The notes under the pieces are model-generated. The model did no database searches, was not told the origin of the DNA, and saw only the letters and a program-made list of their open reading frames with translations. Shown one piece after another: positions 16,344-40,884 of a stretch of DNA of 43,679 bases. Source of the DNA: Flavihumibacter solisilvae (GTDB taxonomy: Bacteria > Bacteroidota > Bacteroidia > Chitinophagales > Chitinophagaceae); NCBI RefSeq assembly GCF_000814475.1, contig NZ_JSVC01000032.1, positions 1 to 43,679 of the forward strand, in the 5' to 3' direction. The stretch's first letter is position 1. The number at the start of each line of letters is the position of its first letter. Made by a program: the position numbers and the translations under genes.

Positions 16344-16381
16344 AAGGTCAAGTTTGAATGTATGGATCCTAACGTTTATAG

Positions 16382-17710: not shown

Positions 17711-18000
17711 TGTATGTTGTTTTAGGTTTGTAAAACACTAATCCGGTTGTTCTTCTAAAACATAATCACACATTCCTTCTCCCCCAAATTGAACCTATCA
17801 TCTCAGCATTGAAGTTTCACAGAGATCAGACCTGCGTTTCTGCGTAGTTGGGTCGTTAGGGATTACCGTTGCCTTAATAATGTTCTCCGGGTACGCTACT
17901 TAACGGGTTTGGTTTTCTTTTCTTCATTCTTTTTCATAGCGGGCATTTTAAATTATCATGAAAATATAATGCCAGTTGCCCGGATGAATTACATTTGGTG
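17711..18000. other. 290-bp intergenic region
   Basis: Divergent spacer between the PepSY-like and Gfo/Idh/MocA genes. It contains a very short Lys-rich reading frame (17896-17946, minus) and a TACATTTG that fits the -7 promoter consensus at 17990-17997 but sits only 3 bp before the ATG. No RNA gene or strong hairpin was recognised. Confidence 0.5.
17896..17946 (-). CDS. Possible 16-residue basic micropeptide
   Basis: A frame of 16 codons, MPAMKKNEEKKTKPVK, with an ATG and a TAG stop. Half of its residues are Lys or Glu. It is too short to be statistically meaningful and lacks a visible ribosome binding site; listed only because the surrounding spacer has no other coding signal. Confidence 0.15.
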   Translation of the reverse strand: MPAMKKNEEKKTKPVK

Positions 18001-19089
18001 ATGCAGAAAAAAATCTTTCGCGTTTTGGTTGTTGGCTGCGGCAATATGGGGAGCTCGCATGCATTGGCTTACAAATCAATTCCCGGCTTCGAAATATGCG
18101 GATTGGTATCCACAGGCAAAAGTAAGCAGGTTCTCGGTGAAAAACTTGGCGGAGATATTCCACTGTTCGACGACCTGGAATCCGCACTACAATCTACTCA
18201 CCCTGATTGCGTCTGCATTTCAACTTATCATGACACCCATGAAAATTTTGCGATCAGGTCCCTGGAAGCCGGCTGCCATGTTTTTATTGAAAAACCATTG
18301 GCAGCGACTGTTGATGGTGCAAAAAGAATGATCGATGCTGCAACACGGACCAACAGGAAAATGGTAGTTGGGTACATCCTCAGGCACCATCCCTCCTGGC
18401 AAAGGTTTATTGAATTGGCAGGAACTCTTGGTAAGCCACTGGTTATGCGGATGAATCTGAACCAGCAGAGCCAGGGTAGCGCATGGTTGGTTCACCGCAG
18501 ACTGCTGGAAGAATTGAGTCCGATAGTTGATTGCGGTGTACATTATATCGACGTCATGTGCCAGATGACGAAGGCGGAGCCTGTACAGGTCAGCGCGATC
18601 GGTGCAAGGCTTACAGACGATATGCCCTCAGGCAATTATAATTATGGTCAACTGCAAATCCGCTTTGCCGATGGCTCAATTGGCTGGTACGAAGCCGGCT
18701 GGGGACCAATGATGAGTGAAACAGCCTTTTTTGTAAAAGATGTGATTGGTCCCAAAGGCTCAGTTTCCATTACTGCCCGGGATGCAGGTGCTGCCGGCAA
18801 GTCTTCGAGTATCGATTCACATACAAAAACGGAATCGCTCCTGTTGCATCATTCAGCTCTGGATGATCAGGGGCATTTCAAAAAGCAGGATGAATGGATC
18901 GACATGAGTGATGAACCAGATCACCAGGAACTTTGTAACCGCCAGCAGCGATTTTTCTTTAAAGCCATTACGGAAAATCTTGATCTGGATGCACACCATC
19001 GGGATGCCCTGAATAGCCTGCGCGTTGCTTTCGCTTGTGATGAATCTGTTCATACAGGCAAAGCGATAAATCTGGAAGCGATAAATTAA
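18001..19089 (+). CDS. Gfo/Idh/MocA-family oxidoreductase (cytoplasmic)
   Basis: NAD(P)-dependent dehydrogenase-like protein of 362 residues without a signal peptide. The Rossmann motif is VVGCGNMGSSH (11-20) and the family's catalytic Lys motif is EKPLA (Lys98); a later D-C-G-V-H-Y-I-D segment supplies the usual Asp/His pair. The ATG at 18001 is preferred to the preceding TTG-GTG codons because it begins directly with the nucleotide-binding strand. Members oxidise or reduce sugars, inositols and their derivatives. The VOC gene follows 57 bp downstream. It differs from the exported family member at 25243-26439, and nothing ties it to a given sugar. Confidence 0.9.
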   Translation: MQKKIFRVLVVGCGNMGSSHALAYKSIPGFEICGLVSTGKSKQVLGEKLGGDIPLFDDLESALQSTHPDCVCISTYHDTHENFAIRSLEAGCHVFIEKPLAATVDGAKRMIDAATRTNRKMVVGYILRHHPSWQRFIELAGTLGKPLVMRMNLNQQSQGSAWLVHRRLLEELSPIVDCGVHYIDVMCQMTKAEPVQVSAIGARLTDDMPSGNYNYGQLQIRFADGSIGWYEAGWGPMMSETAFFVKDVIGPKGSVSITARDAGAAGKSSSIDSHTKTESLLLHHSALDDQGHFKKQDEWIDMSDEPDHQELCNRQQRFFFKAITENLDLDAHHRDALNSLRVAFACDESVHTGKAINLEAIN

Positions 19090-19784: not shown

Positions 19785-20345
19785 ATGACTAATATTCAGT
19801 ACCTGAGCGACTGCCAGCTTGTTACACTTTTGAGGGAAAATGAAAACAGAAAGGCATTTGAGACTCTGTATAACCGCTACTGGAAAAAACTACTGATCCT
19901 AGCCCGCTGCAAAACCGGGTCTGAACAGGAGGCCGAAGAAATCGTACAACAGGTGTTTCTTAACATCTGGAAAATGCGAAAAGAACTTCATATCCGGAAT
20001 ACTTTTCATACTTACATAGCCTCTTGTGTCAAATATGAAATTCTAGCGACCTTGTCACGGCAACAAAAATATCAGAACGCAGTGAACACCTTATCCGGTA
20101 ACCCCACCGCCGACCTCGATAACCAGACCTCTGAATGGCTTGACTATTCCGCTGTTCGCCAGCAACTGGAACAAACTGTACGAAGCCTGCCTGAAAAATG
20201 CCAGCTGGTATTCCGGCTTAGCAGGGAAAGTGGTTATTCTGAAAAGCAAATCGCAGACGTGATGAGTATTTCCAGGAAAACGGTACAGGCACATATGAGC
20301 AAGGCGCTCAAAGTACTTAAAGGCCGCCTTCTGCTTCCACGATAA
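19785..20345 (+). CDS. ECF-type RNA polymerase sigma factor
   Basis: Sigma-70 family protein of 186 residues of the Bacteroidota ECF type. Region 2 spans about 22-90 (AFETLYNRYWKKLLILA, AEEIVQQVFLNIW) and region 4 about 125-180 (SLPEKCQLVFRLSRESGYSE, then IADVMSISRKTVQAHMSKAL, the helix-turn-helix). Factors of this kind are held by a FecR-like anti-sigma that senses a TonB-dependent transducer with an STN domain. No FecR gene adjoins it; the nearest is at 31259-32401, at the other end of the minus-strand SusC/SusD operon whose last gene overlaps this one tail to tail by 29 bp. Pairing of the two is therefore likely but inferred. Confidence 0.92.
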   Translation: MTNIQYLSDCQLVTLLRENENRKAFETLYNRYWKKLLILARCKTGSEQEAEEIVQQVFLNIWKMRKELHIRNTFHTYIASCVKYEILATLSRQQKYQNAVNTLSGNPTADLDNQTSEWLDYSAVRQQLEQTVRSLPEKCQLVFRLSRESGYSEKQIADVMSISRKTVQAHMSKALKVLKGRLLLPR

Positions 20346-21360
20346 AATTGCAGTATAAAAACCCGTCAGGATCCTGCCCGCGTAAACGGGCCAGTTTCTC
20401 AGCCGCCAGCTGCATCGGGATAATATTAACAACAGGGGCAAGCATCGAAGGAAAATGCGGGACTTCAATTTTAAATCCTTTCAAAGTTGCAGGAAGGTCA
20501 TGACCGATTGAAACTATGTTAACGTCTCTCTCTGCAAGGTCATTGACCAGTTGGATATCGTAATCGCGGACAATCCTGTTGTCAAGCCAAAGGGCAATAT
20601 TAAGACTGTTATTAATGATCTCCTGCGGGCCATGACGGAATGCTCCGGTAGTTAACGAAGTTGCCGGATGTTTCGCAGCTTCTTCCCATAATAACCTGCT
20701 CTCGTGGGCCGATGCCAGGTTCGCGCCACGCGCCAGGAAATAAGTGTATGGATTTTTACCTCCCCATCCGGAAGCCTCGGTCATATCCTTCCATTCGGAA
20801 ATCCTCTGGCGGACCTGTATAATTGATGATGTAAGTTCCTCTACCATTGAATTATCCAGCCTATGATCTGCGATGCACCTGGCGAGAATGTTACCATTCA
20901 GGATGATCGATGAATAAGTGCTCACAGAAATACTGTTATCAAAACGGACTCCCATCAGTATGCAGGCGTCAGAGCCCCGGGCAAGAGCACTTTCATTATC
21001 GTTGGTAATGCTTACCACCGACGCTTTTGCCGCACGGCATTTTGGTAAAGCATTTACAATCTCAATACTTTTCCCGCTGCGCGACAGGAAGATAACTGCA
21101 GAATCCGGCAAAATATGGGTAAAGTGCAGGAAATCAGCAGCATCACACAGTTCAGCCTGTACCCCGGTTTCATTGAGCGCTGCCTGTAGTGCAATACCCG
21201 CATTCCAGCTGGCACCGATCGCAGAAATGTAAACATGATCGGCCCTTCGTACAAGCCCTGCTGAAGTTTTCATCTGCGCACTGCCTTCACCGAAATTATA
21301 ATCTATGGAATTCAGCAACTGGTCAGGCTGATCGAGTATATCCCGAAGGTATTTTGTCAT
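20317..21360 (-). CDS. Double-SIS sugar-phosphate isomerase/deaminase-like protein
   Basis: Cytoplasmic protein of 347 residues with two SIS domains, like the isomerase half of GlmS without its glutaminase part; relatives include AgaS-type deaminases and Amadori deglycases. SIS1 holds SAIGASWNAG and the phosphosugar loop FLSRSGKSIE; SIS2 holds FLARGANLASAHES. The segment WEEAAKHPATSLTTGAFRHGP retains a Glu and a His corresponding to GlmS catalytic Glu488 and His504, whereas the position of GlmS Lys485 appears not to be Lys. It probably isomerises, deaminates or deglycates an (amino)sugar phosphate. It starts 5 bp after the flavoprotein gene and is the last gene of the operon. No sugar kinase is encoded in the window, so the source of a phosphate is unexplained. 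Confidence 0.87.
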   Translation of the reverse strand: MTKYLRDILDQPDQLLNSIDYNFGEGSAQMKTSAGLVRRADHVYISAIGASWNAGIALQAALNETGVQAELCDAADFLHFTHILPDSAVIFLSRSGKSIEIVNALPKCRAAKASVVSITNDNESALARGSDACILMGVRFDNSISVSTYSSIILNGNILARCIADHRLDNSMVEELTSSIIQVRQRISEWKDMTEASGWGGKNPYTYFLARGANLASAHESRLLWEEAAKHPATSLTTGAFRHGPQEIINNSLNIALWLDNRIVRDYDIQLVNDLAERDVNIVSIGHDLPATLKGFKIEVPHFPSMLAPVVNIIPMQLAAEKLARLRGQDPDGFLYCNFIVEAEGGL

Positions 21361-21365
21361 AGTAG

Positions 21366-22826
21366 TTACATTTTTCCCGCAGCCGCCTGGTCGCCGGTTA
21401 TTTCGGCAAGCAGGTCTTCGAGCAACGAAGTACAGCTTTCACATCCTGAACCGGCATTAGTGAATTTTTTGACCTCATCCAGTCGTGTTAAGCCATTTTC
21501 CTTTATTTCTGTTACTATTGTTCTTTTTGTTATCCCCTCACACAAGCAGATAACGGTATCATCCGGCAGATTCGTGATCTTTTCCGATGCGGTGTCCGGG
21601 TTCACCGTTACCAGGTCTTCAGGTGATCCGGAAATTTTTATCCTGTTCCGCACCATGTGGAACAACGATGAATAACCACCGGCTTCGCCTAATAAAATGC
21701 CTCCCAATACATATTGCCGGTCAGGGGAAACATTGACACGCTTGTAGATCCCGGAACCCGGGTCTGAATGTACAAGCGGTATGTGATCTTTTTCGCCAAG
21801 TGCATCTCCAAACGAAATGACCTTTACTTCCATCACTTTCAATTTTGTCAACAGGTCATTACCGGTAAAGACCTTGTAGATTTTCGCCAGCCGCGCAGCT
21901 ACAACTTCTGCCATTTCAAAACACGGGGCTGCCAGGCCCCATACTTTACCTGCAGCAAATGCACATTCACCAATAGCAAAAATGTTCTCGTCCTCACTCA
22001 GGTTATAGTTGTTTACAGCAATGCCGCCATTTGGACCTGTTTTCAACTCCGAGGAAACAGCCAGTTCATCACGTGGACGGATACCTGCTGACATTACCAC
22101 CATATCAGCATTCAATTCGGTTCCGTCACTGCAAACCACCAACTTCGTGTTGTCCACTCCAACTATGCGTTCTACTTTTATGCCCGTCAGTATATTTATC
22201 CCCAGTGCCTCAATTTGCTTTTGAAGGATGGCAGCACTGTCGGCATCGAGCTGACGCGACATAATGTGCGGTGCAACTTCTATAATAGTTGTCTTCAGCC
22301 CTGATTCTGAAAGCGCCCGCGCTGCTTCAAGTCCGAGTATACCTCCACCGATTACAACAGCCTTTTGCCCCGGCCGCATGAAATCATGGATTGCCTGTAC
22401 ATCATTAAGGGTACGATATACAAATACACCCTCCATGTCCATATCTGCAATAGGAGGAACAAAAGGTACTGAACCGGTGGCTAAAATGAGTTTGTCGTAT
22501 GTTTCTGTCGCGCCACGTTCAGTCCTGATCCATTTTTCCGCGCGGTTGATCTCAACAATCCGTTGTCCAGTCCGTAAGACCATTTTATGCTGAGCGTACC
22601 AGTTGGATGATGCAAGTATCAGTTTCTCGGCAACCTTATCGGAAAAGAATTTGGTAAGATTGATCCTGTCATATGCCGGGGTCTTTTCTTCTCCATAAAC
22701 AACGAGGTCATAATTTTTGCCCAGCCTGTACTTCACGAATTTTTCGCAAAACTTGAATCCCACAGGTCCATTTCCAATCAGTACCAGCTTTGTCTTTTTT
22801 ACCGGCTCAACTGAAGTCCTTTTCAT
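21366..22826 (-). CDS. NirB-like FAD/NAD(P)H reductase with C-terminal BFD [2Fe-2S] domain
   Basis: Flavoprotein of 486 residues equivalent to the N-terminal half of nitrite reductase NirB. It has an FAD motif (LIGNGPVGFKF), an NAD(P)H motif (VVIGGGILGLEAARAL) and the second FAD motif (NIFAIGECA). The C terminus is a BFD-like domain with Cys427, Cys429, Cys462 and Cys465 (C-x-C, then C-x2-C), which should bind [2Fe-2S]. The sirohaem/4Fe-4S half of NirB is missing, so it is not a nitrite reductase. Its ATG overlaps the stop codon of the Rieske oxygenase gene (ATGA), so it is most likely the electron donor for that oxygenase, carrying electrons from NAD(P)H through FAD and its own cluster. The role is inferred from domains and coupling. 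Confidence 0.88.
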   Translation of the reverse strand: MKRTSVEPVKKTKLVLIGNGPVGFKFCEKFVKYRLGKNYDLVVYGEEKTPAYDRINLTKFFSDKVAEKLILASSNWYAQHKMVLRTGQRIVEINRAEKWIRTERGATETYDKLILATGSVPFVPPIADMDMEGVFVYRTLNDVQAIHDFMRPGQKAVVIGGGILGLEAARALSESGLKTTIIEVAPHIMSRQLDADSAAILQKQIEALGINILTGIKVERIVGVDNTKLVVCSDGTELNADMVVMSAGIRPRDELAVSSELKTGPNGGIAVNNYNLSEDENIFAIGECAFAAGKVWGLAAPCFEMAEVVAARLAKIYKVFTGNDLLTKLKVMEVKVISFGDALGEKDHIPLVHSDPGSGIYKRVNVSPDRQYVLGGILLGEAGGYSSLFHMVRNRIKISGSPEDLVTVNPDTASEKITNLPDDTVICLCEGITKRTIVTEIKENGLTRLDEVKKFTNAGSGCESCTSLLEDLLAEITGDQAAAGKM

Positions 22827-23998
22827 TCGTTCATTTTTTCCAGGTACCAGGAATGGAAATTCACTACATCAGCTTCTGAAGGTGCCAGCGGTCCCGGCTC
22901 ATACCGCGTCGAACGAATCCCCTTCTGGTTGTTTTCACAGAGATGCCAATCCTGCTCCCCGGTGATCTTCCAGAATTCAGTAAGCCTTTCCACATCATAA
23001 TCTATTCCTTCTTCGGCCTTACCGTCGACCAGCCAGGTAAGGTCAACAACAGATCGCGATTCATCCAACGGTGTAATGCGCATCGACCAGAGATAATCAC
23101 TCACTCCATCCATCCAGAAGTTAGGATAATTGATGAGACCTACCACACCGGCATCGTAATGCTTATGTTCGCCCATGAGAGGTGCTGCAGGTCTTCCATC
23201 CAGTGTATAACTTTCCATACCCGGACGCAATGGATAACGCGTAGCATAATGACTTGCGCCATTTTCGTTTTCAATCGTTCCAACAGCCAACCCATTTTGC
23301 TGCCAGATAGTCATGCTTTCCTCCACAACAGCTTCCCTGTCTTCAACCAGGTTGGCTCCCACTACAACACTGCAATATTCGATGTGAACCGGTCCGCAGT
23401 GATAGCACTCACGGAAATTCTCACCAATGAGTTTCCAGTTGGCATCGAGTTCATATCGGTCGCGGTATGCAACTTTCGCCTTGTCAAGCTGGAATGGTTG
23501 CAGGTATGGCGCAAGCCCCTCCGTTTCCCGTGTAAAATCCGGCGCCACATCACTAAGACAAATAAAAATAGCTCCCTCGATCTGCCGGATGTGTACAGGA
23601 TGTAATCCAAAGTGGCTCTTGTCAAAATCTTCTGGCATTAATCGTGCATTCCGGAGATTTCCTTTTTTATCATACACCCAACTGTGGTATGGACATTTCA
23701 GGTTTTCTTCATGCCCACGCTCTTCCAGGCAGATCGCAGATCCGCGATGCCTGCAGGAATTGTGATGGGCATAGATTTTCCCATCATCATTCCTGATGAT
23801 GATGACAGATTGCTCGAGAATATTATATGTAAAATAATCGCCCGGCTCCGGAATTTCACAGGAGAAACCCGCAAATAGCCATCGCTTCTTCCAGACCTGT
23901 TCCACTTCACTGTCGAACACTTCACGACTGGTATAGAAATCGCGTTCAAGACTCCATCCCTTTTTATATTGCTTCAAGAGCATTTGCACTTTATTCAT
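22823..23998 (-). CDS. Rieske non-haem iron oxygenase alpha subunit, GbcA-like
   Basis: Terminal oxygenase of 391 residues. The Rieske site is Cys82-x-His84 and Cys102-x2-His105 (SCRHRGS and CPYHSW). The catalytic domain has Asn194, Glu197, His200 and His205 in ENFRECYHCGPVH, and an Asp in the late GEQDWHLCE segment as the likely third iron ligand. Opening blocks (SLERDFYTSREVFDSEVEQV, WLFAGFSCEIPEPGDYF) and the GIRSTRYEPGPL tail resemble glycine-betaine/stachydrine demethylases and choline/carnitine monooxygenases rather than arene dioxygenases, and there is no beta-subunit gene. It probably performs oxidative N- or O-demethylation or hydroxylation of a small cytosolic substrate. Overlaps of 8 bp with the MFS gene and 4 bp with the reductase gene show tight coupling. 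Confidence 0.9.
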   Translation of the reverse strand: MNKVQMLLKQYKKGWSLERDFYTSREVFDSEVEQVWKKRWLFAGFSCEIPEPGDYFTYNILEQSVIIIRNDDGKIYAHHNSCRHRGSAICLEERGHEENLKCPYHSWVYDKKGNLRNARLMPEDFDKSHFGLHPVHIRQIEGAIFICLSDVAPDFTRETEGLAPYLQPFQLDKAKVAYRDRYELDANWKLIGENFRECYHCGPVHIEYCSVVVGANLVEDREAVVEESMTIWQQNGLAVGTIENENGASHYATRYPLRPGMESYTLDGRPAAPLMGEHKHYDAGVVGLINYPNFWMDGVSDYLWSMRITPLDESRSVVDLTWLVDGKAEEGIDYDVERLTEFWKITGEQDWHLCENNQKGIRSTRYEPGPLAPSEADVVNFHSWYLEKMNE

Positions 23999-25205
23999 AT
24001 TGGGGAATTTTATAGCTTTTTGATTTTGCTGATCTGTAGAACAGCAGGAATGAGATTATTCCAACAATAAATACCAACAGGCTGAAAATTCCGAACACCT
24101 GGTGCATCGGCATGCTTTCATACATTCTGCCGATAAGAATATTTCCCAGTACAGCCCCTGCGCCGAAATACATTGCCCAGAGCAGCGATTGCCCGGTAGT
24201 TCGCCATTGCGGAGGCACTTTTTCGTTCACAAATTCAACAGATGCGATCCATAAGAGTGTCCATGTAACGCCATTCAGTGTTTCGATGCCAATGACTGCA
24301 TAAGGATTATTGTTAAGGTAATACAACAACAATCTGAGCCCCGTTCCGAAAATGGCAATCACAAGTACTTTTCCGGGCGATATCTTCCGCAACATCCATG
24401 CTGCAATGAAATAGAACGGTAATTCACTGAGTGCCTGGATTCCGATTGCCGTTCCCGTTGTAGTAGACGAAGCGCCAATTTCACGCATGTATACGGTAAG
24501 AAAAAAAGAACTGCAGGATTGAGCTATCGACACGATTACCAGGATGAACAGGAATCCCAGCAGCACTTTATTGATTAAAGTCTGGCGCAGCCCCCTGAAA
24601 CTCAGGTCCGCAGCTGAAACTGCAGGTGGCAATACGGTTAATGTTTTTGCCACTAGCCAACCTGATACCAGGAAAATCGCAGCCAGGTAAAAACAGACAT
24701 CACTTCCGAATTTTGGCATCAGCAGACCCGTCAGTAATGCGCCCAGTCCAAAACCAGGTGCGCCCCAGAATCGTAATGTACTGTATGAAACTGTTGCGTC
24801 TGCCGAAGTATGATCAAGCGTAAGGCTGTCCAGTAACGGTAATACAGGTGATTGAAAAACTGCGAATAGGAAAATCATTACAGCTATTAGTGTGGTTCCT
24901 GACGCAGAAAATGGGAAAATGGCGAACAGGATTGCAGACAGTAATATGGCGAAACTAAAGCAGCGCATTTTACCGGCTCTATCAGCAAGCAGTCCCCAGA
25001 AGGGCTGTACGATCAGCATTACCAGCCACGGAATTGCTGAAAGATAGCCCATCTGGGAGCCACTCATACCTTTATCTTCCAGCCAGATATTCAGGTTGGG
25101 CATCCAGGCACCCAGCGAAGCGAAACAAAACAGGAAAACTGCCCGGAAGCGGTTGTTTTCCGTCCCGATTCTCAGCAATCGTCCTGTATTATGAATGTCC
25201 GGCAC
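23991..25205 (-). CDS. MFS transporter (MFS_1_like / LacY-HcaT-like)
   Basis: Inner-membrane permease of 404 residues with about twelve helices. It belongs to the MFS_1_like group, which holds sugar, nucleoside and phenylpropionate importers: FCFASLGAWMPNLNIWLEDKG in helix 1, PWLVMLIVQPFWGLLADR between helices 2 and 3, and the F-W-G-x-x-G-F-G helix 5 motif. The start is a GTG at 25205; no ATG is available because a stop codon lies five codons upstream. It probably moves the SusC/SusD-imported ligand or its product into the cytosol, since the Rieske oxygenase gene overlaps it by 8 bp. The substrate is unknown. Confidence 0.88.
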   Translation of the reverse strand: MPDIHNTGRLLRIGTENNRFRAVFLFCFASLGAWMPNLNIWLEDKGMSGSQMGYLSAIPWLVMLIVQPFWGLLADRAGKMRCFSFAILLSAILFAIFPFSASGTTLIAVMIFLFAVFQSPVLPLLDSLTLDHTSADATVSYSTLRFWGAPGFGLGALLTGLLMPKFGSDVCFYLAAIFLVSGWLVAKTLTVLPPAVSAADLSFRGLRQTLINKVLLGFLFILVIVSIAQSCSSFFLTVYMREIGASSTTTGTAIGIQALSELPFYFIAAWMLRKISPGKVLVIAIFGTGLRLLLYYLNNNPYAVIGIETLNGVTWTLLWIASVEFVNEKVPPQWRTTGQSLLWAMYFGAGAVLGNILIGRMYESMPMHQVFGIFSLLVFIVGIISFLLFYRSAKSKSYKIPQYE

Positions 25206-25242
25206 TTTGTTATTGATTTATAAGTTACGAATACTTTTTCCC

Positions 25243-26439
25243 TTACCCTACCATTGGCCAGGGAAAAGCTGAGTTGAGGTTAATTCGCTGGCCGGTACGT
25301 TGTGATTCCCGCGCAGCTTCAATGATTTCAAGCACATGAAGCGAGTGTTCAACGTTGATCAGTGGTTGTTTGCCGGTTGACATGCATTCGCAAATCACAG
25401 ATGCGCCTTCCTGCCAGACATATGAACCGGTGTCTGTGGCAAATCTCTGGGTTGCGGGATTCTCATGTGTAGCCATATCCACACCGAAAGGCATCCAGTC
25501 ATAACCGACCATATGCATGTTACCTTTTGAACCGTAAACTGAAATTGTTGGTCGCTCCTGCCCTTTTCCCTGGTGACCGTAAGGATCAAAGTAATTGAAC
25601 CCGCACTGGATATGACTGATCACACCACTGTGATGCTCGAACAACACTTGGGCATTGTCTTCTGCAACGACCTGGATCGATCCTTTATCTTCAACATTCC
25701 TTGTAGGCGTGATCACATTTGTCATGGCAACAACTGATTTGGCTGGACCAAACAGACCGGTAAGCGTTGCAATGTTATATACACCAAGGTCCGGCAGACT
25801 GCCCCCATTTTCTTCGTAGAAGAATGCGGACCAGTGCGGACCTTCATGACCATAGTGGCCATGCGCCGCAGCGATCCGGCCCAACTTGCCCTCTGCGATC
25901 TGCTTTGCCATAAAAGCGAACTGTGGACTATTCACTACTGCAGGAGCGCCCCAGATCTTTACTCCTTTCGCTTTTGCAAGATCAAGGATCTCACGACCTT
26001 CCTTATACGTATTTGCCAGCGGCTTTTCGCACCACACATGTTTACCCGCTGCAATGGCGATTTTATTGAGGCGCCCATGCTCCTGCATATTGGTGGTATT
26101 GATCAACAAGTCGAACGGCACCCCGGCCAGCATTTTGTCAATATGCGGATACACAGTTGCACCACTAAACTGCTTCGCCCTTTTCTGGGCACGATCAGGC
26201 TTGATGTCACAAAGGCTGACAACCTCTGCAAACTGGCAATTGGCAAGATGGGGAAGATATACACCTGAAACACTACCACAACCAATGAGTCCTACCCTGA
26301 CTTTCCTGTTCAAGGGCAACTGCGGAACATCCGCAGTACCTTTTTCGGCAGCAGTTGCCAATACAGAAGGAGATAAAACTGCAGCGGCACCCAGCACGCC
26401 AAAGTTTGTCAGGAAGTTTTTTCTTGAAATATTTTTCAT
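25243..26439 (-). CDS. Exported Gfo/Idh/MocA-family protein
   Basis: Oxidoreductase-like protein of 398 residues with a Tat-like leader (ISRKNFLTNFGVLGAAAVLSPSVLA; Arg-Lys rather than Arg-Arg), so it would be exported folded with its NAD(P). The Rossmann motif is VGLIGCGSVSG and the catalytic Lys motif is CEKPLANTY; a D-L-G-V-Y-N segment follows. Some exported relatives are NAD-dependent glycosidases (for example GH109), others dehydrogenases; the residues seen do not separate these. Its place between susD-like and MFS genes, 32 and 37 bp away, suggests that it processes the imported sugar in the periplasm before uptake. Confidence 0.88.
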   Translation of the reverse strand: MKNISRKNFLTNFGVLGAAAVLSPSVLATAAEKGTADVPQLPLNRKVRVGLIGCGSVSGVYLPHLANCQFAEVVSLCDIKPDRAQKRAKQFSGATVYPHIDKMLAGVPFDLLINTTNMQEHGRLNKIAIAAGKHVWCEKPLANTYKEGREILDLAKAKGVKIWGAPAVVNSPQFAFMAKQIAEGKLGRIAAAHGHYGHEGPHWSAFFYEENGGSLPDLGVYNIATLTGLFGPAKSVVAMTNVITPTRNVEDKGSIQVVAEDNAQVLFEHHSGVISHIQCGFNYFDPYGHQGKGQERPTISVYGSKGNMHMVGYDWMPFGVDMATHENPATQRFATDTGSYVWQEGASVICECMSTGKQPLINVEHSLHVLEIIEAARESQRTGQRINLNSAFPWPMVG

Positions 26440-26471
26440 GTCGTTGATTTTGTTATTGTCAGAAACTGATG

Positions 26472-28013
26472 TTAATAGCCTGGGTTTTGTTTTAATTTAT
26501 TATTGGCGTCGATCGCAGCCTGTGGAATAGCGTAGAGCAGGTATTTCGGGTCACTGGCGTAAGGCTTGAACGGAGAACGTGGTTGCAGGAACTTATCAAA
26601 CCGGATCATGTCCTGGCGGGTAAAGCCTTCCCATGCCAGTTCGAATCTTCTTTCCTTGTAAATATATTCGAGTGTTACTGATCCATACAATTTCGAAGGG
26701 TCAGTAAATGCCCTTGCCCTAATAGCATTTACTAAAGAGGTTGCTTCAGTATTGCTGCCGCCATTCCGTACCAGTGCTTCTGCCTTCATCAGGTACACGT
26801 CCGCTAGCCGGAAAATATGAAAGTCATTTTCCATACTGTTACTTAATCCCAGTTCGAAAGGCCATTTTTTAATCCTCGCCCCTTCTTCCTGGTTGATCCA
26901 GCCCCAACCGTCCGATCCCACTTCATTCATAACCATATCCACTGTGTGGATCAGTGGCCTGCCGTGCGGAGTGAGAATGATTTCACCAGCAGGGTTTCTC
27001 ATTTCACCAATCAAGAAAGAGGCATCATACCTTGAATCTGCCGGATCAAACTCCTTAACATACGAAGGGGTGGCGGCTATACCGTTCCATGGACTTATAT
27101 TCAGTCCAAGCGCAATCGGATCAAAATAGTGAAGGGTATTCAGCGCGATGTTGTTCTGCCTGCCGCTTCCGCCGGTTTTGAATACCGCACTAAAGATGGC
27201 TTCGCGTGAAATGTTATTGTTTGGAACAAAATTTACATCCCACTTCTCAAGCTGGTATGGCATGGCAAGCACTTCGTTGCAGGCATCGATGCATTCCTGC
27301 CATTTAGGTCCGCCTGCAGGATTCCACGACATTGCATTGAGATACATTTTCGCAAGCAATGTATAGGCGGCACCGCGTGTCATCTTTCCGTAGCTCGCAG
27401 GGGTTGCGACATCAGTACGCAGTTTGTCCTTTACTTCGTTCAACTCATTGACGATAAAGTTGAAAACTTCCGCCCTGGTCCTCGTTTCCGGTTGTGATTT
27501 ATCAAGAAAGTCAGTAACGATGGGCACATTACCATAATGGTCAACTAGGATATAATACCAGAAAGCTCTCACCGCCCTGATCTCGGCCAGGATCTGCACT
27601 TTCAGTTCCGGAACAATTGCGTTGTTAATATCGATCTGGTAGTAGATCTGGTTGCAAAGGGAAATGTTGGCAGACGGTCCGAAATAGGACTCATTGAAGC
27701 CGCTGCTGCTCGCATTCCAGGTATGCCTCATAGTTTCCTTGTACATCGGCTCACTCCAGTCCCCTCCTTTATATCCGGGAATGGCGATCATATCGGATGA
27801 CAATCCATCCATCGTAATATAGGTGTCCCAGTCTATGCAATGAAGCTTAAGTGTACTGTAGATCGAACCCACCAGGGCATTAATCTGTTCCTGGTTCGTG
27901 CCGAAATCGTCTACTGCTACCTGTGAGTACAAAGTCTCGTCCAGTTTCGTGCAGGATGTGGATAGTGCCACAGTAAGTGCCAGCGTGTATAGTGGTAGTT
28001 TGATTTTTTTCAT
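26472..28013 (-). CDS. susD: SusD/RagB-family outer-membrane lipoprotein
   Basis: Surface glycan- or nutrient-binding lipoprotein of 513 residues. The ATG at 28013 starts a lipoprotein signal (MKKIKLPLYTLALTVALSTSC, lipid anchor at the Cys); the TTG two codons upstream is rejected. The SusD fold is recognisable from the N-terminal TPR region (EIRAVRAFWYYILVDHYGNVPIVTD, MTRGAAYTLLAKMYLNAM) and the C-terminal block YIYKERRFELAWEGFTRQDMIRF. It works as the lid of the SusC channel encoded 18 bp upstream. The ligand cannot be predicted. Confidence 0.95.
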   Translation of the reverse strand: MKKIKLPLYTLALTVALSTSCTKLDETLYSQVAVDDFGTNQEQINALVGSIYSTLKLHCIDWDTYITMDGLSSDMIAIPGYKGGDWSEPMYKETMRHTWNASSSGFNESYFGPSANISLCNQIYYQIDINNAIVPELKVQILAEIRAVRAFWYYILVDHYGNVPIVTDFLDKSQPETRTRAEVFNFIVNELNEVKDKLRTDVATPASYGKMTRGAAYTLLAKMYLNAMSWNPAGGPKWQECIDACNEVLAMPYQLEKWDVNFVPNNNISREAIFSAVFKTGGSGRQNNIALNTLHYFDPIALGLNISPWNGIAATPSYVKEFDPADSRYDASFLIGEMRNPAGEIILTPHGRPLIHTVDMVMNEVGSDGWGWINQEEGARIKKWPFELGLSNSMENDFHIFRLADVYLMKAEALVRNGGSNTEATSLVNAIRARAFTDPSKLYGSVTLEYIYKERRFELAWEGFTRQDMIRFDKFLQPRSPFKPYASDPKYLLYAIPQAAIDANNKLKQNPGY

Positions 28014-28031
28014 GACCAATCTTTTGTTTGG

Positions 28032-31000
28032 TTAAAAATTCATGTCAATGCCAAAAGAGAATGTCCGTGGTTTTGGAACAAAAACATTTTCCAGCACACC
28101 GGGTGCCAACCCGCTCATGTTCACTTCGGGATCCATTCCATTGAAACTGGTGATAACAAAGAGGTTTTGTGCAGTCACATACAAGCGAAGCCCACTAATA
28201 CCTTTTTCCTTTTTATCAATCAGCTGGTAAGAAAGACTGGCGTTATCAAGACGCAGGAAAGAACCTTTTTCAATGTAGAAGCTGGAAAATTTCGGATCAT
28301 CGTTAACCCCGTTTGTCAGGGCATCCTTCATTACATTTGAACCTGGCAGCCATTTCACGTTGGCATACTGCAATCTTGGGTTATTGAGAACATCATTCCC
28401 ATACACACCCCTGAAGAAAATGGAAAGATTGAACTTTTTATATGTCAACGAGTTGTAAATGCTATATGTGAATCGGGGCATCGCATTCCCGATATACGTA
28501 TAATCGAGGCTGTTGATCTCACCATCCTTGTTCTGGTCAACGAAAACGAATTTTCCGTCTTCATCCAGGCCGGCAGATTTCCAACCATAGAATGTTCCTA
28601 CTTCCTTGCCCTCCTCGATAATGTGACTGGTAAGGTTGCCTGACCCCCGCAAGTTGATGGAACCGGTTTTAATGCTTTCCGTTTGATACATGTCATTGGA
28701 AAGGCTGTTCACCACGTTCTTGTTTGTTGCAAAATTCAACGTACTGGTCCAGCGAAAGTTCTTGTTCCGGATGTTTTCCGTATTGATCAAAAACTCAAAT
28801 CCGGAGTTGGTCATATCACCAACGTTTGCGAGTGTGGTCGGAAACAGGTTCGGTGGTACGGGGACATTGTATACATAAAGCAGGTCGGTGGTTTTCTTAA
28901 CATAAAAATCCATTGCACCTGAAACACGGCCGGCAAACAATGAATAATCAATCCCAATATTGCTTGTAGCGGTCTCTTCCCACTTCAGGTCAGGGTTGTT
29001 ATTCTGGACGTAGCGATAGGTGTTTCTCCACATTCCATTATCATAGTACTCATCGCCCCTTCCATAAAGTGCTATAGAATTATAAGGCCCGATCCCTTCC
29101 TGGTTACCCACCTTACCATAACCAATCCTGAGCTTCAGTTCGTCCACAACAGTACTTGAACTCAGGAATGCTTCTTCGGAAATAGTCCATGCCGCAGACG
29201 CTGATGGGAAGAGACCCCATTTATTATTCTTGCCGAATTTGGAAGAACCGTCACGGCGTATTGTGGCACTCATAGTGTACTTCCCGTTGTAACTGTAGTT
29301 AAGTCTGCCGAAGAAAGAGATCAGCTTACTCAGTTCTTTATTAGAACCAACATCGCCGGGGAAGAGATTTTCTCCTGCAGTTAGATTATTGTATTCAAAC
29401 TGGTCGGTTATGAACCCCCTGTTCGCAGCACGAACAAACTGCGCATAGTTCTCTTCATATGAATAGCCACCCAGAAGCTTGAAGTCGTGATCCTTAATGC
29501 TCCTGTCGTATTCGCCCGTAATCTCCATCAGGTTCTTGTCCCATACATTGTTTTCACGGTATGCATATCCCCGGTCATTTCTTCCAGCCTGGGACGTGAT
29601 GGAATTATACCTTGCCCCATCCTGCGTCATGCGCTGTTTAAACAGGTTGACCCCAGCCGTGAACCCTTCGAAGAGTTTGACTTTTATATTTCCATTTCCA
29701 TAAAGCTGGCTTGTTTTGTTGTCATTGCTGTTTTCCTCGATGTTATGCACGGGGTTTCCCTGTTCCCAGTCATATTTTTCAAACCAGGTGCCATCTTCGT
29801 TCTTAATGTTATAAACAGGCAGCATCGTGTATGCCAACACCGTATTGTAACCATTTGTCGGCGAAAAATCACTTTGGGTTGCGCCACCCGTTAACGACAG
29901 GTTGATCCTGCCGTCAAGCACTTTCTGGTTCACACTGAATAGGGCGTTGAATCGCTTAACGCTGTTATCTTTCATGATCCCCTGCCGGTTAAGGTAGTTG
30001 AGCGACGCACGATAGTTGCCTTTATCTGTGCCGCCTGAAACGGAAAGGTTGTTGTTAGTTGAAATACCCGTGCGCATGATTTCATCGAACCAGTCGGTAT
30101 TGCCACCCATATCGAGACCGGTAACATCCATACCATTGGCCGAAGTGTACTTACGCCATTCATCTGCGGATAGAAGTTCAGGCTTGTTCGCTACTTTATC
30201 TACCGCTATATAATTATTGAATTGGATCTTTTGCTGTCCTGACCTGCCCTTCTTTGTTGTGATCAGGATCACACCACTCGCTGACCGCGATCCGTAGATA
30301 GCTGTAGCAGCGGCATCTTTCAGTACACTTATTGTTTCAATATCCTGCGGTGCTACTGATGTCATATCCATACCCGGTACTCCATCTATCACGACAAATG
30401 GCGCACTGGAACCCGTGAGTGATGATGTTCCGCGAAGGCGGATGGTTGGTTTTGCAGTTACATCACCCGATTCTGTGGTTACTGTCAACCCCGCCACTTT
30501 TCCCTGCAGGAGGTCTGCTGCAGTTTGCGTAACACCTTTATTGAAGTCCTTTTCAGAAACAACTGCTATTGACCCAGAAACATCTTTCTTTTTCTGAGTG
30601 CCATAGCCGATCACTACGACTTCATTCAGCTTACTTTCCAATAGTTCGAGCTTCACCGTGATCGTCGCATTGTGACTGGCTGCCACCTCCTTAGTTGCAT
30701 AACCGGTGTAAGTAAACACCAGCGTTCCATTTTCAGGGATAGTGATAGTGAATTTCCCTGAAGCATCAGAAGTTGTTCCAATGGTTGTCCCTTTCAACAT
30801 GATGCTCACACCATGCAGTGGTGCGCCTGCGTCCGAACTGACTGACCCTGTTATTTCTATCGGTGGAGTTGCAACTTCTGTGGTTACCTGGAAATTTTTA
30901 TTATTGCGTGGAATTACTACTATAGTATTCTCCACAATCTTATACGTTACCGGCTGTTGGCGGAAACAGAGATCCAAAACATGCTCCAGTGTTGCATTCT

Positions 31001-31232
31001 TCACGCTGATGCTAACCGTGCTGGTATTTTCGAGTTGCTTGTTGCTGTAAATAAACAGGTAGCCGCTCTGTTTTTTAATTTCATGGAAGACCTTGTCGAG
31101 TGATGCATCCTGGAGAGTGATCGTTAATGGTTGCGTAAATGCTTTTGCGCTGACCTGCAGGCCGACAGCAAGCAGCAGAACCAGTACGATCCACCCGCGG
31201 GCGGCGACTTTACAGGAAGTGTCAAGTTTCAT
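28032..31232 (-). CDS. susC: SusC/RagA-family TonB-linked outer-membrane channel with STN domain
   Basis: Outer-membrane transporter of 1066 residues. After a signal peptide come an STN domain (about 50-105, LDKVFHEIKKQSGYLFIYSN), a carboxypeptidase-like domain (about 125-200), the SusC signature VVVIGYGTQKKKDVSGSI near 210-226, the plug (LRGTSSLTGSSAPFVVIDG, SVLKDAAATAIYGSRSASGV) and a long barrel ending in F. The STN domain means that it can signal to a FecR-type anti-sigma, whose gene lies 26 bp upstream. With SusD it should import an oligosaccharide-like or other large ligand, powered by TonB. Confidence 0.96.
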   Translation of the reverse strand: MKLDTSCKVAARGWIVLVLLLAVGLQVSAKAFTQPLTITLQDASLDKVFHEIKKQSGYLFIYSNKQLENTSTVSISVKNATLEHVLDLCFRQQPVTYKIVENTIVVIPRNNKNFQVTTEVATPPIEITGSVSSDAGAPLHGVSIMLKGTTIGTTSDASGKFTITIPENGTLVFTYTGYATKEVAASHNATITVKLELLESKLNEVVVIGYGTQKKKDVSGSIAVVSEKDFNKGVTQTAADLLQGKVAGLTVTTESGDVTAKPTIRLRGTSSLTGSSAPFVVIDGVPGMDMTSVAPQDIETISVLKDAAATAIYGSRSASGVILITTKKGRSGQQKIQFNNYIAVDKVANKPELLSADEWRKYTSANGMDVTGLDMGGNTDWFDEIMRTGISTNNNLSVSGGTDKGNYRASLNYLNRQGIMKDNSVKRFNALFSVNQKVLDGRINLSLTGGATQSDFSPTNGYNTVLAYTMLPVYNIKNEDGTWFEKYDWEQGNPVHNIEENSNDNKTSQLYGNGNIKVKLFEGFTAGVNLFKQRMTQDGARYNSITSQAGRNDRGYAYRENNVWDKNLMEITGEYDRSIKDHDFKLLGGYSYEENYAQFVRAANRGFITDQFEYNNLTAGENLFPGDVGSNKELSKLISFFGRLNYSYNGKYTMSATIRRDGSSKFGKNNKWGLFPSASAAWTISEEAFLSSSTVVDELKLRIGYGKVGNQEGIGPYNSIALYGRGDEYYDNGMWRNTYRYVQNNNPDLKWEETATSNIGIDYSLFAGRVSGAMDFYVKKTTDLLYVYNVPVPPNLFPTTLANVGDMTNSGFEFLINTENIRNKNFRWTSTLNFATNKNVVNSLSNDMYQTESIKTGSINLRGSGNLTSHIIEEGKEVGTFYGWKSAGLDEDGKFVFVDQNKDGEINSLDYTYIGNAMPRFTYSIYNSLTYKKFNLSIFFRGVYGNDVLNNPRLQYANVKWLPGSNVMKDALTNGVNDDPKFSSFYIEKGSFLRLDNASLSYQLIDKKEKGISGLRLYVTAQNLFVITSFNGMDPEVNMSGLAPGVLENVFVPKPRTFSFGIDMNF

Positions 31233-31258
31233 AAGCTGGCAATTGTTGGTTTTATTTG

Positions 31259-32401
31259 TTAGTTGGCAATCCTTGTGTTGGCGAGAACGGTTAACGATTT
31301 ACCATTCTTCTCGAAGCGGACCTCCCTGGTGAGCGATAAAATCTCCAGGACCGCTGCCAGGTCTTTCTTTCGCTCCATCATTCCAGAGAAGCGGACATCA
31401 TTCAGTCCTGGTCCCATGTTCACGTCAATGTCATACCACCTGGATAGCTGCTCCATTATTGTGGGGACATTTGCATTATTGAGTTTGAACAGACCCGATT
31501 TCCAGGCCATTACTGCCTCCAGGTCGGGAGATTTATCAAGATGGATCTTTTTTGAACCGGGAAGAAGCCTGGCCTGCTGACCAGGAGCAAGCAACTGCTC
31601 ACTGCCGTTACCGGCAAACTTTACTTTGCCTTCGAGCAGGGTAACTACAGGCTGCCCATAAGTGTTGACGTTAAAATGTGTACCCAGTACTTCTGTAGAT
31701 GAGGTTTGCGTACGCACAACAAATTTCCGCGCAGCATCCGGACTTACTTCAAAATATACTTCACCGGTTATCTCAACTTCCCGTTGTTTTCCGCTGAACG
31801 AAACGGGGAAATGCATTGTGCTTTCCATGTTGAGCCAGGCAATGGTACCGTCAGAAAGCCGGATTGACTGGACCTTACTGCCTTTGGGTACACTAATGGT
31901 GTTGAAGAGAATTTCCTGGCTTTCGCGGTTTTGATGCAGGTAGGCTAGCTGACCATCAGGCTGTTTGTGAATAATTGCAGAACCCTGGCTTGCAACCGGA
32001 CCGGTATTTACCATCTCTAAAGGAATCGTGGAACCGTTTGCAAGTGTAAGACTAACGCCTTCAATCTTTTCAGGCGCGATTTTGGTGCGGGCTATTTGAG
32101 GTTCACTGTCTTTCCTTTTACCTGAAGTATAAGTGTAAAAAAATAAGCTTGCGCTTCCGATTATTACCAGTACACTGGCAGCAATGGCGAATTTCCTGGT
32201 CAACCTGTTGATCCGTGGTTCATCCATGATCTGGCTGAACATCCTTGCCTTAAGCTCGTCTTCCGAATCTGCACTCATCCAGTTGAGGCTTTCTTCAGGA
32301 TGATCATTGTACCAATGTTCAAACTCCTGTTTTTCTTCCTCGGTAATGGTGCCGTTCAGCCATTTCTCCGCCAATACCCTTATTTTCTCCTGTTGGTTCA
32401 C
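31259..32401 (-). CDS. FecR-family anti-sigma factor
   Basis: Inner-membrane regulator of 380 residues. It has a short cytoplasmic N terminus (EKWLNGTITEEEKQEFEHW) that should bind the sigma factor, one membrane helix at 71-92, the FecR domain at about 170-265 (AWLNMESTMHFPVSF, VEITGEVYFEV, LGTHFNVNTYG, LLEGKV) and a DUF4974 tail from about 310. The start is a GTG at 32401; a stop codon lies eight codons upstream with no ATG between. In most Bacteroidota loci the ECF sigma gene sits immediately upstream; here that place holds an unrelated permease and the only ECF gene in the window is 11 kb away, beyond the operon's 3' end. Confidence 0.93.
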   Translation of the reverse strand: MNQQEKIRVLAEKWLNGTITEEEKQEFEHWYNDHPEESLNWMSADSEDELKARMFSQIMDEPRINRLTRKFAIAASVLVIIGSASLFFYTYTSGKRKDSEPQIARTKIAPEKIEGVSLTLANGSTIPLEMVNTGPVASQGSAIIHKQPDGQLAYLHQNRESQEILFNTISVPKGSKVQSIRLSDGTIAWLNMESTMHFPVSFSGKQREVEITGEVYFEVSPDAARKFVVRTQTSSTEVLGTHFNVNTYGQPVVTLLEGKVKFAGNGSEQLLAPGQQARLLPGSKKIHLDKSPDLEAVMAWKSGLFKLNNANVPTIMEQLSRWYDIDVNMGPGLNDVRFSGMMERKKDLAAVLEILSLTREVRFEKNGKSLTVLANTRIAN

Positions 32402-39799: not shown

Positions 39800-39851
39800 A
39801 ATTGAGACAATACCCAATAATAAAAAAAGAATGGCTGATCGCGAAAATGAT

Positions 39852-40874: not shown

Positions 40875-40884
40875 AAACCAAATT

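What the first reader, a model, noticed from the sequence alone, without database searches (positions are those of the whole stretch)
20317..32401. SusCD uptake locus fused by operon structure to a Rieske oxygenase and a SIS deaminase-like enzyme
Eight minus-strand genes lie in order with gaps of at most 37 bp or overlaps: FecR, SusC (STN), SusD, exported Gfo/Idh/MocA, MFS, GbcA-like Rieske oxygenase, NirB-like reductase with BFD domain, double-SIS protein. PUL-type loci usually carry glycoside hydrolases; none is seen here. Known facts: GbcA-like Rieske enzymes demethylate quaternary amines, and SIS proteins of this build act on (amino)sugar phosphates. Inference: the locus imports an N- or O-methylated, or otherwise hydroxylatable, (amino)sugar or sugar conjugate, removes the group oxidatively in the cytosol, and feeds the product to isomerisation or deamination. 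I know of no described pathway with this combination; O-demethylation of methylated algal galactose uses P450 instead.
Basis: partly seen in the sequence, partly recalled or inferred. Interest (0 to 1): 0.85.

Follow-up and report, generated by a model that had tools for sequence, protein, structure and literature searches.

The report
Putative N-methyl amino-sugar catabolic operon
A Bacteroidota bacterium carries an operon that appears to import a methylated amino sugar, strip methyl groups off its nitrogen with an oxygen-using Rieske enzyme and feed the sugar into central metabolism; every part belongs to a known family, the combination looks undescribed, and the substrate is inferred rather than shown.

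Summary
In detail: eight minus-strand genes (FecR, SusC, SusD, exported Gfo/Idh/MocA, MFS, group V Rieske, NirB-like/BFD reductase, GlmS-like SIS) lie head to tail; a convergent ECF sigma gene was missed. MFS, Rieske, reductase and SIS stay together in 8 of 8 close relatives; in 394 family genomes the SIS protein (E<=1e-40) occurs only in the five with this Rieske type. SusCD is not core: beside the Rieske in 6 of 8 close relatives, none in L013, only a distant SusC in L011, not part of the sister clade's cluster. A PfkB kinase sits between reductase and SIS in five relatives; a sixth has a ROK kinase and an MttB-family demethylase. In the sister clade an unrelated NagB-fold hexosamine-6-phosphate-deaminase homologue lies within 3.5 kb in 19 of 21 loci, with a ROK kinase in 11. 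A third, 33-37% identical Rieske type sits in betaine-to-glycine clusters in 9 of 9 loci. Best reading: oxidative N-demethylation of a methylated, possibly quaternary, amino sugar, with phosphorylation and deamination. N,N,N-trimethylglucosamine is one candidate. No enzymatic step has been tested, and the window's operon lacks the kinase.

The parts
31259..32401 (-). FecR-type anti-sigma/signal transducer
   Evidence: PF04773 64.2 bits, PF16344 57.6 bits
28032..31232 (-). SusC/RagA TonB-dependent transporter with STN domain
   Evidence: TIGR04056 776 bits, PF07660; 60-76% identical orthologues in 6 of 8 clade-A loci, L018 cut by the contig end
26472..28019 (-). SusD-family surface lipoprotein
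   Evidence: PF07980 105.5 bits; 65-82% identical in 6 of 8 clade-A loci
25243..26439 (-). Gfo/Idh/MocA oxidoreductase with an N-terminal signal (Tat-like, RK rather than RR; read by eye)
   Evidence: PF01408, PF22725; relatives in both clades, K139, D217, Y221 invariant in 15 of 15 aligned; fold matches include DgpA, scyllo-inositol dehydrogenase, GFOR, AAOR, GenD2, KanD2
23991..25205 (-). MFS transporter of the MFS_1_like / LacY-nucleoside symporter group
   Evidence: PF12832 200.9 bits; 49-72% identical in 8 of 8 clade-A loci
22823..23998 (-). Group V Rieske oxygenase
   Evidence: PF00355 and PF00848; GbcA model 350.3 bits; C82, H84, C102, H105, E197, C198-x-x-C201, H200, H205, D350 in the alignment (role of each residue taken from CntA or recalled); 8 relatives at 62-81%
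21366..22826 (-). NirB-like FAD/NAD(P)H reductase with C-terminal BFD [2Fe-2S] domain, without the C-terminal nitrite-reductase part
   Evidence: NirB model positions 1-473 of 794, Fer2_BFD 56 bits; 46-65% identical in 8 of 8 clade-A loci; two NirB-like matches elsewhere in the genome, 42% and 29%
20317..21360 (-). GlmS isomerase-like SIS protein, putative hexosamine-phosphate deaminase/isomerase
   Evidence: GlmS models 111-113 bits; active-site comparison; best fold matches GlmS/GFAT isomerase domains
19785..20345 (+). Convergent ECF sigma factor, likely partner of FecR
   Evidence: TIGR02985 140.5 bits; 58-59% relatives in the same convergent place in L012 and L014

Best explanation
The operon encodes uptake and breakdown of an N-methylated (probably quaternary or tertiary) amino sugar or a conjugate of one. 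SusC/SusD take it across the outer membrane under FecR/ECF-sigma control. The exported Gfo/Idh/MocA enzyme acts on the sugar in the periplasm (a redox step or redox-assisted cleavage) and the MFS carrier brings it into the cytosol. There the group V Rieske oxygenase, fed electrons from NAD(P)H through the NirB-like/BFD flavoprotein, hydroxylates an N-methyl group, which leaves as formaldehyde. A sugar kinase (PfkB or ROK; in the operon in 6 of 8 close relatives, presumably encoded elsewhere in this genome) makes the 6-phosphate, and the SIS enzyme isomerises/deaminates it to a ketose phosphate plus the amine. Shown: gene order, domain content, conserved linkage, residue conservation. Inferred: substrate, order of demethylation and phosphorylation, number of methyl groups removed, electron path, cellular location of each step.
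For: Linkage: MFS, Rieske, reductase and SIS together in 8 of 8 clade-A loci. Co-occurrence: of 394 family genomes the SIS query matches 5 at E<=1e-40, the same 5 that have a Rieske at 68-100% identity. Kinase: PfkB in the operon in 5 of 8, ROK in 1 of 8. Non-homologous counterpart: the sister clade has a NagB-fold protein (AgaI 194.5 bits, NagB 192 bits, both below cut-off) with D72, H143, E148 and K208 of E. coli NagB in 17 of 17 sequences, i.e. 16 distinct loci, within 3.5 kb of the Rieske in 19 of 21 distinct loci; the genomes searched hold 2-4 matches to the family (12 of 12). A ROK kinase lies in 11 of 21, in 9 of them within 40 bp of the Rieske on the same strand. Demethylation: bridging Glu and CxxC of group V (PMC10952381, passages); an MttB-family gene in L018, a superfamily some of whose non-pyrrolysine members demethylate quaternary amines (PMC8604678, passages). 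Contrast: the 33-37% Rieske type sits with choline-dehydrogenase-like, aldehyde dehydrogenase, dimethylglycine-dehydrogenase-like and sarcosine-oxidase genes in 9 of 9 loci, two in the window's genus; the same probes hit 0 of 8 clade-A and 0 of 21 clade-B loci. The SIS protein keeps GlmS S303, S347, S349, E488, H504 in 9 of 9.
Against: No kinase in the window's operon, nor in those of L011 and L013; the window's genome has no PfkB orthologue (best 33%, 37.5 bits). SIS scores are far below every curated cut-off, and GlmS K603 is F or L in 9 of 9. Clade B has a SIS-domain gene of another subfamily (SIS_2) in 10 of 21 loci, so 'NagB instead of SIS' is not a clean swap. NagB is absent from L026 and partial in L022. 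The window's genome has three other NagB-family matches that could deaminate GlcN-6-P without the SIS protein. No genes for removing a second or third methyl group were recognised. Neither a Stc4-like nor a NirB-like reductase was found in clade-B loci, so the proposed electron partner is specific to clade A. Clades A and B group together at 88/94, below the tool's star. No protein here has been assayed in anything I read.
Confidence: 0.58

Rival explanations
1. Quaternary-amine conjugate: the locus takes up a sugar carrying a choline-, betaine- or similar aglycone. The Rieske acts on the aglycone amine and the SIS/kinase part handles an ordinary amino sugar or sugar phosphate.
For: Group V Rieske enzymes act on small quaternary amines (PMC10952381, passages); MttB homologue in L018.
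Against: The genes that accompany the betaine-type Rieske in 9 of 9 loci (dimethylglycine-dehydrogenase-like, sarcosine oxidase, aldehyde dehydrogenase) were hit in 0 of 8 clade-A and 0 of 21 clade-B loci by the same probes; many clade-B contigs are short, so some absences may be cut-offs.
Confidence: 0.15
2. Amadori-type substrate: PfkB kinase plus SIS protein are the equivalent of FrlD/FrlB or FraD/FraB, and the pathway handles a ketosamine of a methylated amine.
For: A kinase plus deglycase pair (FraD, FraB) serves fructose-asparagine use (abstracts in the listing; the PfkB and SIS family labels are recalled); fructoselysine 6-kinase model 58 bits for the PfkB protein.
Against: SIS scores 113 bits to GlmS against 34 to fructoselysine-6-P deglycase and folds best on GlmS; the PfkB scores higher to iolC and ribokinase models; the sister clade uses a NagB-fold protein and ROK kinase, which fit a hexosamine phosphate.
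Confidence: 0.12
3. O-demethylation or amino-cyclitol route, rhizopine-like: the Rieske removes an O-methyl group and the Gfo enzyme oxidises the ring.
For: Rhizopine catabolism involves mocDEF and, by the title of a cited paper, a ferredoxin-oxygenase complex (PMC10107442, passages); Gfo fold matches include inositol dehydrogenases.
Against: Group V sequence marks; hexose-type kinases and hexosamine-6-P-deaminase homologues would not be expected for an inosamine.
Confidence: 0.08
4. Two adjoining systems: a generic SusCD import unit that happens to lie upstream of an independent Rieske/SIS catabolic unit.
For: No SusCD/FecR beside the Rieske in L011 and L013, and no SusCD in the conserved clade-B cluster.
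Against: SusC/SusD relatives (60-82%) precede the unit in 6 of 8 clade-A loci, one of them in a Prolixibacteraceae genome; gaps of 12-37 bp in the window.
Confidence: 0.15

Closest known systems
Glycine betaine monooxygenase GbcA / stachydrine demethylase Stc2 (group V Rieske)
   Same: Rieske and catalytic domains, bridging Glu and CxxC aligned; GbcA model 350 bits; S. meliloti plasmid homologues beside stc4/stc3 about 37.5% identical.
   Different: Separate branch in the tree; NYPNFWMD...SDY where most proteobacterial references have WNHF...DH; NirB-like/BFD reductase, where six annotated plasmid references have four 'hybrid-cluster', one Stc4 and one PDR/VanB-type neighbour; amino-sugar-type instead of betaine or amino-acid neighbours.
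Carnitine monooxygenase CntA/YeaW
   Same: E and CxxC motif aligned.
   Different: Very long branch in the tree; different partner gene in E. coli (YeaX).
Betaine-to-glycine cluster of the same family of bacteria (9 loci)
   Same: Group V-like Rieske, 33-37% identical.
   Different: Sarcosine-oxidase, dimethylglycine-dehydrogenase-like and aldehyde dehydrogenase neighbours in 9 of 9 instead of SIS, kinase, Gfo and SusCD.
GlmS isomerase domain and SIS-type glucosamine-6-P deaminases (NagB-II, GlmD)
   Same: Two-SIS layout by alignment and fold, phosphate-loop serines, E488 and H504.
   Different: No glutaminase half, K603 and K485 lost, Q348 to R; scores below all curated cut-offs.
Rhizopine catabolism (mocDEF, mocBA, mocC)
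   Same: Catabolism of an amino-cyclitol, with an oxygenase complex by the title of a cited paper; MocA gives the Gfo/Idh/MocA family its name (recalled).
   Different: No SusCD, kinase or SIS, and another oxygenase family for MocD (all recalled).
P450-based demethylation of 6-O-methyl-D-galactose in porphyran-degrading marine bacteria
   Same: Oxidative demethylation of a methyl sugar with release of formaldehyde (PMC10033563, abstract in listing).
   Different: P450 and O-methyl group there; Rieske and probably N-methyl here.

Membership tests
Group V Rieske oxygenases (quaternary ammonium) | Rieske CxH...CxxH and mononuclear-iron His/His/Asp residues | tested here: met
   C82/H84/C102/H105, H200, H205, D350 in the alignment; ligand roles recalled for the family
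Group V Rieske oxygenases (quaternary ammonium) | Bridging Glu next to a Cys-x-x-Cys pair at the iron site (the pair is present in some members) | tested here: met
   RECYHC, E197-C198-x-x-C201; E205 and Cys206/Cys209 of CntA from PMC10952381 passages
Group V Rieske oxygenases (quaternary ammonium) | Demethylates or cleaves a quaternary ammonium substrate | not testable with these tools
   needs an enzyme assay
GbcA equivalog (NF058607) | Score at or above the curated cut-off of 670 | tested here: not met
   350.3 bits
Polysaccharide utilisation locus | Adjacent SusC and SusD homologues | tested here: met
Polysaccharide utilisation locus | Glycoside hydrolase or polysaccharide lyase in the locus | tested here: not met
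   no such Pfam or NCBIfam match above the thresholds used among the eight operon proteins
SIS-type glucosamine-6-P deaminase (NagB-II, GlmD) | Curated equivalog cut-off | tested here: not met
   51.5 of 430 and 37.8 of 580 bits
Two-SIS hexosamine-phosphate enzymes (broad) | Phosphate-loop serines and Glu/His pair of the GlmS isomerase site | tested here: met
   S347, S349, T352 to S, E488, H504 in 9 of 9; residue roles recalled
GlmS (glucosamine-6-P synthase) | Glutaminase domain and Schiff-base Lys603 | tested here: not met
   347 aa, K603 is F or L in 9 of 9
Fructosamine-6-P deglycases (FrlB) | Curated FrlB equivalog cut-off | tested here: not met
   33.9 of 430 bits
NirB nitrite reductase | Full-length NirB, cut-off 578 | tested here: not met
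   461.6 bits, model positions 1-473 of 794 only
Rhizopine catabolism | mocD/mocE/mocF homologues | not tested
   no moc query was run

The most novel reading that the evidence does not exclude
A previously undescribed aerobic catabolic route for quaternary amino sugars (such as N,N,N-trimethylglucosamine, known from the Streptomyces product TMG-chitotriomycin), in which a new branch of group V Rieske oxygenases, served in one clade by a new kind of reductase (NirB-like flavoprotein with a BFD cluster), removes N-methyl before a SIS enzyme or, in the sister clade, a NagB-fold enzyme deaminates the sugar phosphate.
Probability: 0.35. Interest if true: 0.78.

Novelty: new variant of a known kind. 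Interest (0 to 1): 0.62.

Why it matters
If right, N-methylated amino sugars are a nutrient for some Bacteroidota, with a dedicated import and demethylation route, and group V Rieske chemistry extends from betaines to sugars. It would also make a NirB-like/BFD protein a Rieske reductase. TMG-chitotriomycin selectively inhibits insect and fungal glucosaminidases (PMC5480352, introduction), so a bacterial route that consumes such compounds would bear on their fate. The two sister clades, one with a SIS protein and one with a NagB-fold protein, give a directly testable prediction.

Tried and rejected
Betaine catabolism by this operon: rejected as the main reading, because the genes that mark it occur with a different Rieske type (33-37%) in 9 of 9 loci and with none of 8 clade-A and 21 clade-B loci. 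GlmS or NirB proper: rejected by missing domains and residues. NAD-dependent glycosidase of the GH109 kind for the Gfo protein: considered; its Pfam hits were generic Gfo/NAD-binding domains and none of the 50 fold matches shown is labelled as one; not excluded. MttB as the general counterpart: its L018 copy was found in 1 of 11 genomes of the locus set and in 1 of 395 genomes of its class, that one itself, so it is a single case. A Bacteroidota-type promoter pattern (motif recalled) gave 0 matches in the window against 1.74 expected. Literature: 'trimethylglucosamine' 1 paper, off topic by its title; Rieske with glucosamine-6-phosphate deaminase 1 paper, off topic; Rieske with BFD-like 0; Rieske, SusC, polysaccharide utilization and demethylase together 0; searches gave nothing on such a pathway in the rows shown, a capped part of 39, 651 and 584 papers. 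The library holds open-licence papers only. FraB catalytic residues: looked for in two papers and not found, so that comparison is not used. L017 lies in the set of clade A but its genome was not in the 394.

Full report
What is there. A convergent ECF sigma gene (+, 19785-20345) was missed; a relative keeps the same convergent place in L012 and L014, and FecR heads the operon, so control by a FecR/ECF pair through the STN domain of SusC is likely (inference). The Gfo protein has an N-terminal signal of Tat-like form (RK; read by eye), so it is probably exported. The window is one whole contig of a 5.4-Mb genome rated 99.97% complete.

How common it is. Counting the window's own genome, the Rieske protein has a match at E<=1e-30 in 5 of 99 relatives, at E<=1e-60 in 2 of 395 genomes of the phylum and at E<=1e-60 in 24 of 394 of the family. 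A scan of genome contigs gave 38 loci, 26 from Bacteroidota (L011-L036) and 12 from other phyla at 28-32% identity, which I set aside. The Bacteroidota loci fall into two groups: A (L011-L018, 62-81% identical) and B (L019-L036, 53-56%; with L095, L096 and L105, fetched from family genomes, 53-58%). In a tree of 38 rows A has support 94/99, B 100/99, and A plus B against the references 88/94, the last below the tool's star.

Clade A. MFS, Rieske, reductase and SIS are together in 8 of 8 loci; L018 has reductase and Rieske in swapped order. FecR-SusC-SusD precede them in 5 of 8 (L012, L014-L017). L018 has SusC-SusD, with the contig ending inside SusC. L011 and L013 have none upstream and show genes like the FabF and RNase III genes of L012 there; L011 has a 29% SusC 5.7 kb downstream, L013 none. 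The operon-type Gfo is in 5 of 8 (L014-L018). L011-L013 have instead a Gfo on the other strand 2.9-5.2 kb away, 55-59% identical to the window's; in the alignment the L012 and L013 proteins share features with the clade-B proteins. A PfkB kinase lies between reductase and SIS in 5 of 8 (L012, L014-L017); L018 has a ROK kinase and an MttB-family protein (PF06253, 77.1 bits) in the operon. The window, L011 and L013 have no kinase in the operon. The window's genome has no PfkB orthologue (best 33%, 37.5 bits) but has seven ROK matches, six of them over most of the model. MttB was found in 1 of 11 genomes of the set and in 1 of 395 of the class of L018, that one itself.

Co-occurrence. In two searches of 394 family genomes, apparently the same draw, the SIS protein matches five genomes at E<=1e-40 (48-100% identity), and these are the five with a Rieske of 68-100% identity; in each the two lie on one contig within 3 kb. 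Some of these genomes hold loci already seen, and related genomes are not independent, so this repeats the linkage evidence rather than doubling it.

Clade B. In 21 of 21 distinct loci the Rieske is convergent with an MFS gene. A near full-length NagB-fold gene lies within 3.5 kb of the Rieske in 19 of 21, in 17 of them on the strand of the MFS gene; L022 has a partial one near a contig end and L026 none. NCBIfam puts it nearest to galactosamine-6-P isomerase (194.5 bits) and glucosamine-6-P deaminase (192 bits), below the cut-offs. D72, H143, E148 and K208 of E. coli NagB are kept in 17 of 17 sequences (16 distinct loci); D141 is N and R172 is K. The 12 genomes searched hold 2-4 matches to this family each, so adjacency is not expected by chance. 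A ROK kinase is in 11 of 21, in 9 of these within 40 bp of the Rieske and on its strand; a MetE-like gene in 12 of 21 (one cut by a contig end); the Gfo relative in 7; SIS_2 in 10; SDR in 9; SusC (30%, over 6 kb away) in 2; NirB-like or Stc4-like reductase in none. Many contigs end early, so the presences are lower bounds. One genome, G1000, has both an A and a B locus.

The contrast. The same family of bacteria carries a third Rieske type, 33-37% identical to the window's, in nine genomes (G012, G013, G966, G995, G1085, G1110, G1147, G1194, G1196). In 9 of 9 the Rieske lies with dimethylglycine-dehydrogenase-like, sarcosine-oxidase-subunit, aldehyde dehydrogenase, amino-acid permease and choline-dehydrogenase-like genes (domains read for one locus, the rest by similarity). 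None of these sarcosine/dimethylglycine/aldehyde-dehydrogenase probes hits any of the 8 A or 21 B loci, and no SIS, NagB, PfkB or ROK probe hits the nine. G966 and G1194 have both this and the clade-A type. So within one family of bacteria the Rieske type divides the neighbourhoods: betaine genes for one, amino-sugar-phosphate genes for the other two. The nine lack a Stc4-like gene as well, so that absence is not special to clades A and B.

Enzymes. The Rieske has the expected iron-binding residues and the Glu and Cys-x-x-Cys that mark some group V enzymes (PMC10952381, passages). Clades A and B share NYPN[FI][WF]MD and VSDY where most proteobacterial references have WNHF and DH (16 rows printed), which may reflect a different substrate (inference). 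The reductase is the N-terminal part of NirB with Rubredoxin_C and BFD domains. Six annotated plasmid references have as neighbour four times a 'hybrid-cluster NAD(P)-dependent oxidoreductase', once Stc4 and once a PDR/VanB-type gene. That the BFD cluster hands electrons to the Rieske cluster is inference from gene order. The SIS protein keeps S303, S347, S349, E488 and H504 of E. coli GlmS, with T352 to S and Q348 to R, but K603 is F or L and K485 is L or I in 9 of 9 (residue roles recalled). Its AlphaFold model (pLDDT 74.5; 210-251 and 333-347 poor) matches GlmS/GFAT isomerase domains best. The Gfo model (pLDDT 73.3) matches DgpA, scyllo-inositol dehydrogenase, GFOR, AAOR, GenD2 and KanD2 among others.

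Reading. Two unrelated deaminase-type folds and two unrelated kinase types beside the same Rieske lineage point to a hexosamine phosphate as intermediate; the Rieske type and the single MttB case point to an N-methyl group. N,N,N-trimethyl-D-glucosamine is a real natural unit, in TMG-chitotriomycin of Streptomyces anulatus (PMC5480352, introduction read), but nothing here shows that it is the substrate. It is open whether the Rieske acts before or after the kinase, and whether all methyl groups go, or one goes and a methylamine leaves in the deaminase step.

Known or new. Every component belongs to a known family. Oxidative demethylation of a methyl sugar is known with P450 (PMC10033563, abstract in listing), and the model of rhizopine catabolism involves a ferredoxin-oxygenase complex (PMC10107442, passages and the title of a cited paper). 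I found no paper on the present combination in the searches, which cover open-licence papers only and of which three listed only part of their hits. I class it as a new variant of a known kind.

Noticed in passing
window 19785-20345 (+): ECF sigma factor gene convergent with the operon, 3' ends overlapping by 29 bp; same arrangement in L012 and L014, while L015-L017 have a sigma gene divergent from FecR.
   Followed up: partly
L018:6196-7665: MttB-family methyltransferase gene inside the operon of a Prolixibacteraceae genome, the only case found; no corrinoid protein was looked for.
   Followed up: partly
L029:14092-15117 and 11 further clade-B loci: MetE-like (Meth_synt_2) gene near the Rieske in 12 of 21 loci; its methyl donor is unknown and it may belong to the same demethylation theme.
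   Followed up: no
L022:11114-11801: NagB-fold gene only partial, as two short ORFs near the contig end.
   Followed up: no
window 38276-39898 (-): Sulfatase with SGSH_C domain, beyond the ABC-permease gene upstream of the operon; link to the operon not shown.
   Followed up: no
window 14949-17212 (-): BBE-type FAD oxidoreductase gene overlapping by 4 bp a gene with SCO4226-like and guanylate-cyclase domains, an odd pair.
   Followed up: no
window 17995-19089 (+): Second Gfo/Idh/MocA gene just before the sigma gene, followed by a glyoxalase-like gene.
   Followed up: no
L061 (G000:C40:67248-68669): NirB-like paralogue, 42% identical to the operon reductase, with one in-frame TAA in the stretch.
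   Followed up: no
window 39852-43653 (-): PorP/SprF-like protein and a large SprB-repeat protein with a type IX secretion signal domain.
   Followed up: no
genome G1000 (L015 and L095): One genome carries both a clade-A and a clade-B Rieske locus, so the two may serve different substrates or conditions.
   Followed up: partly
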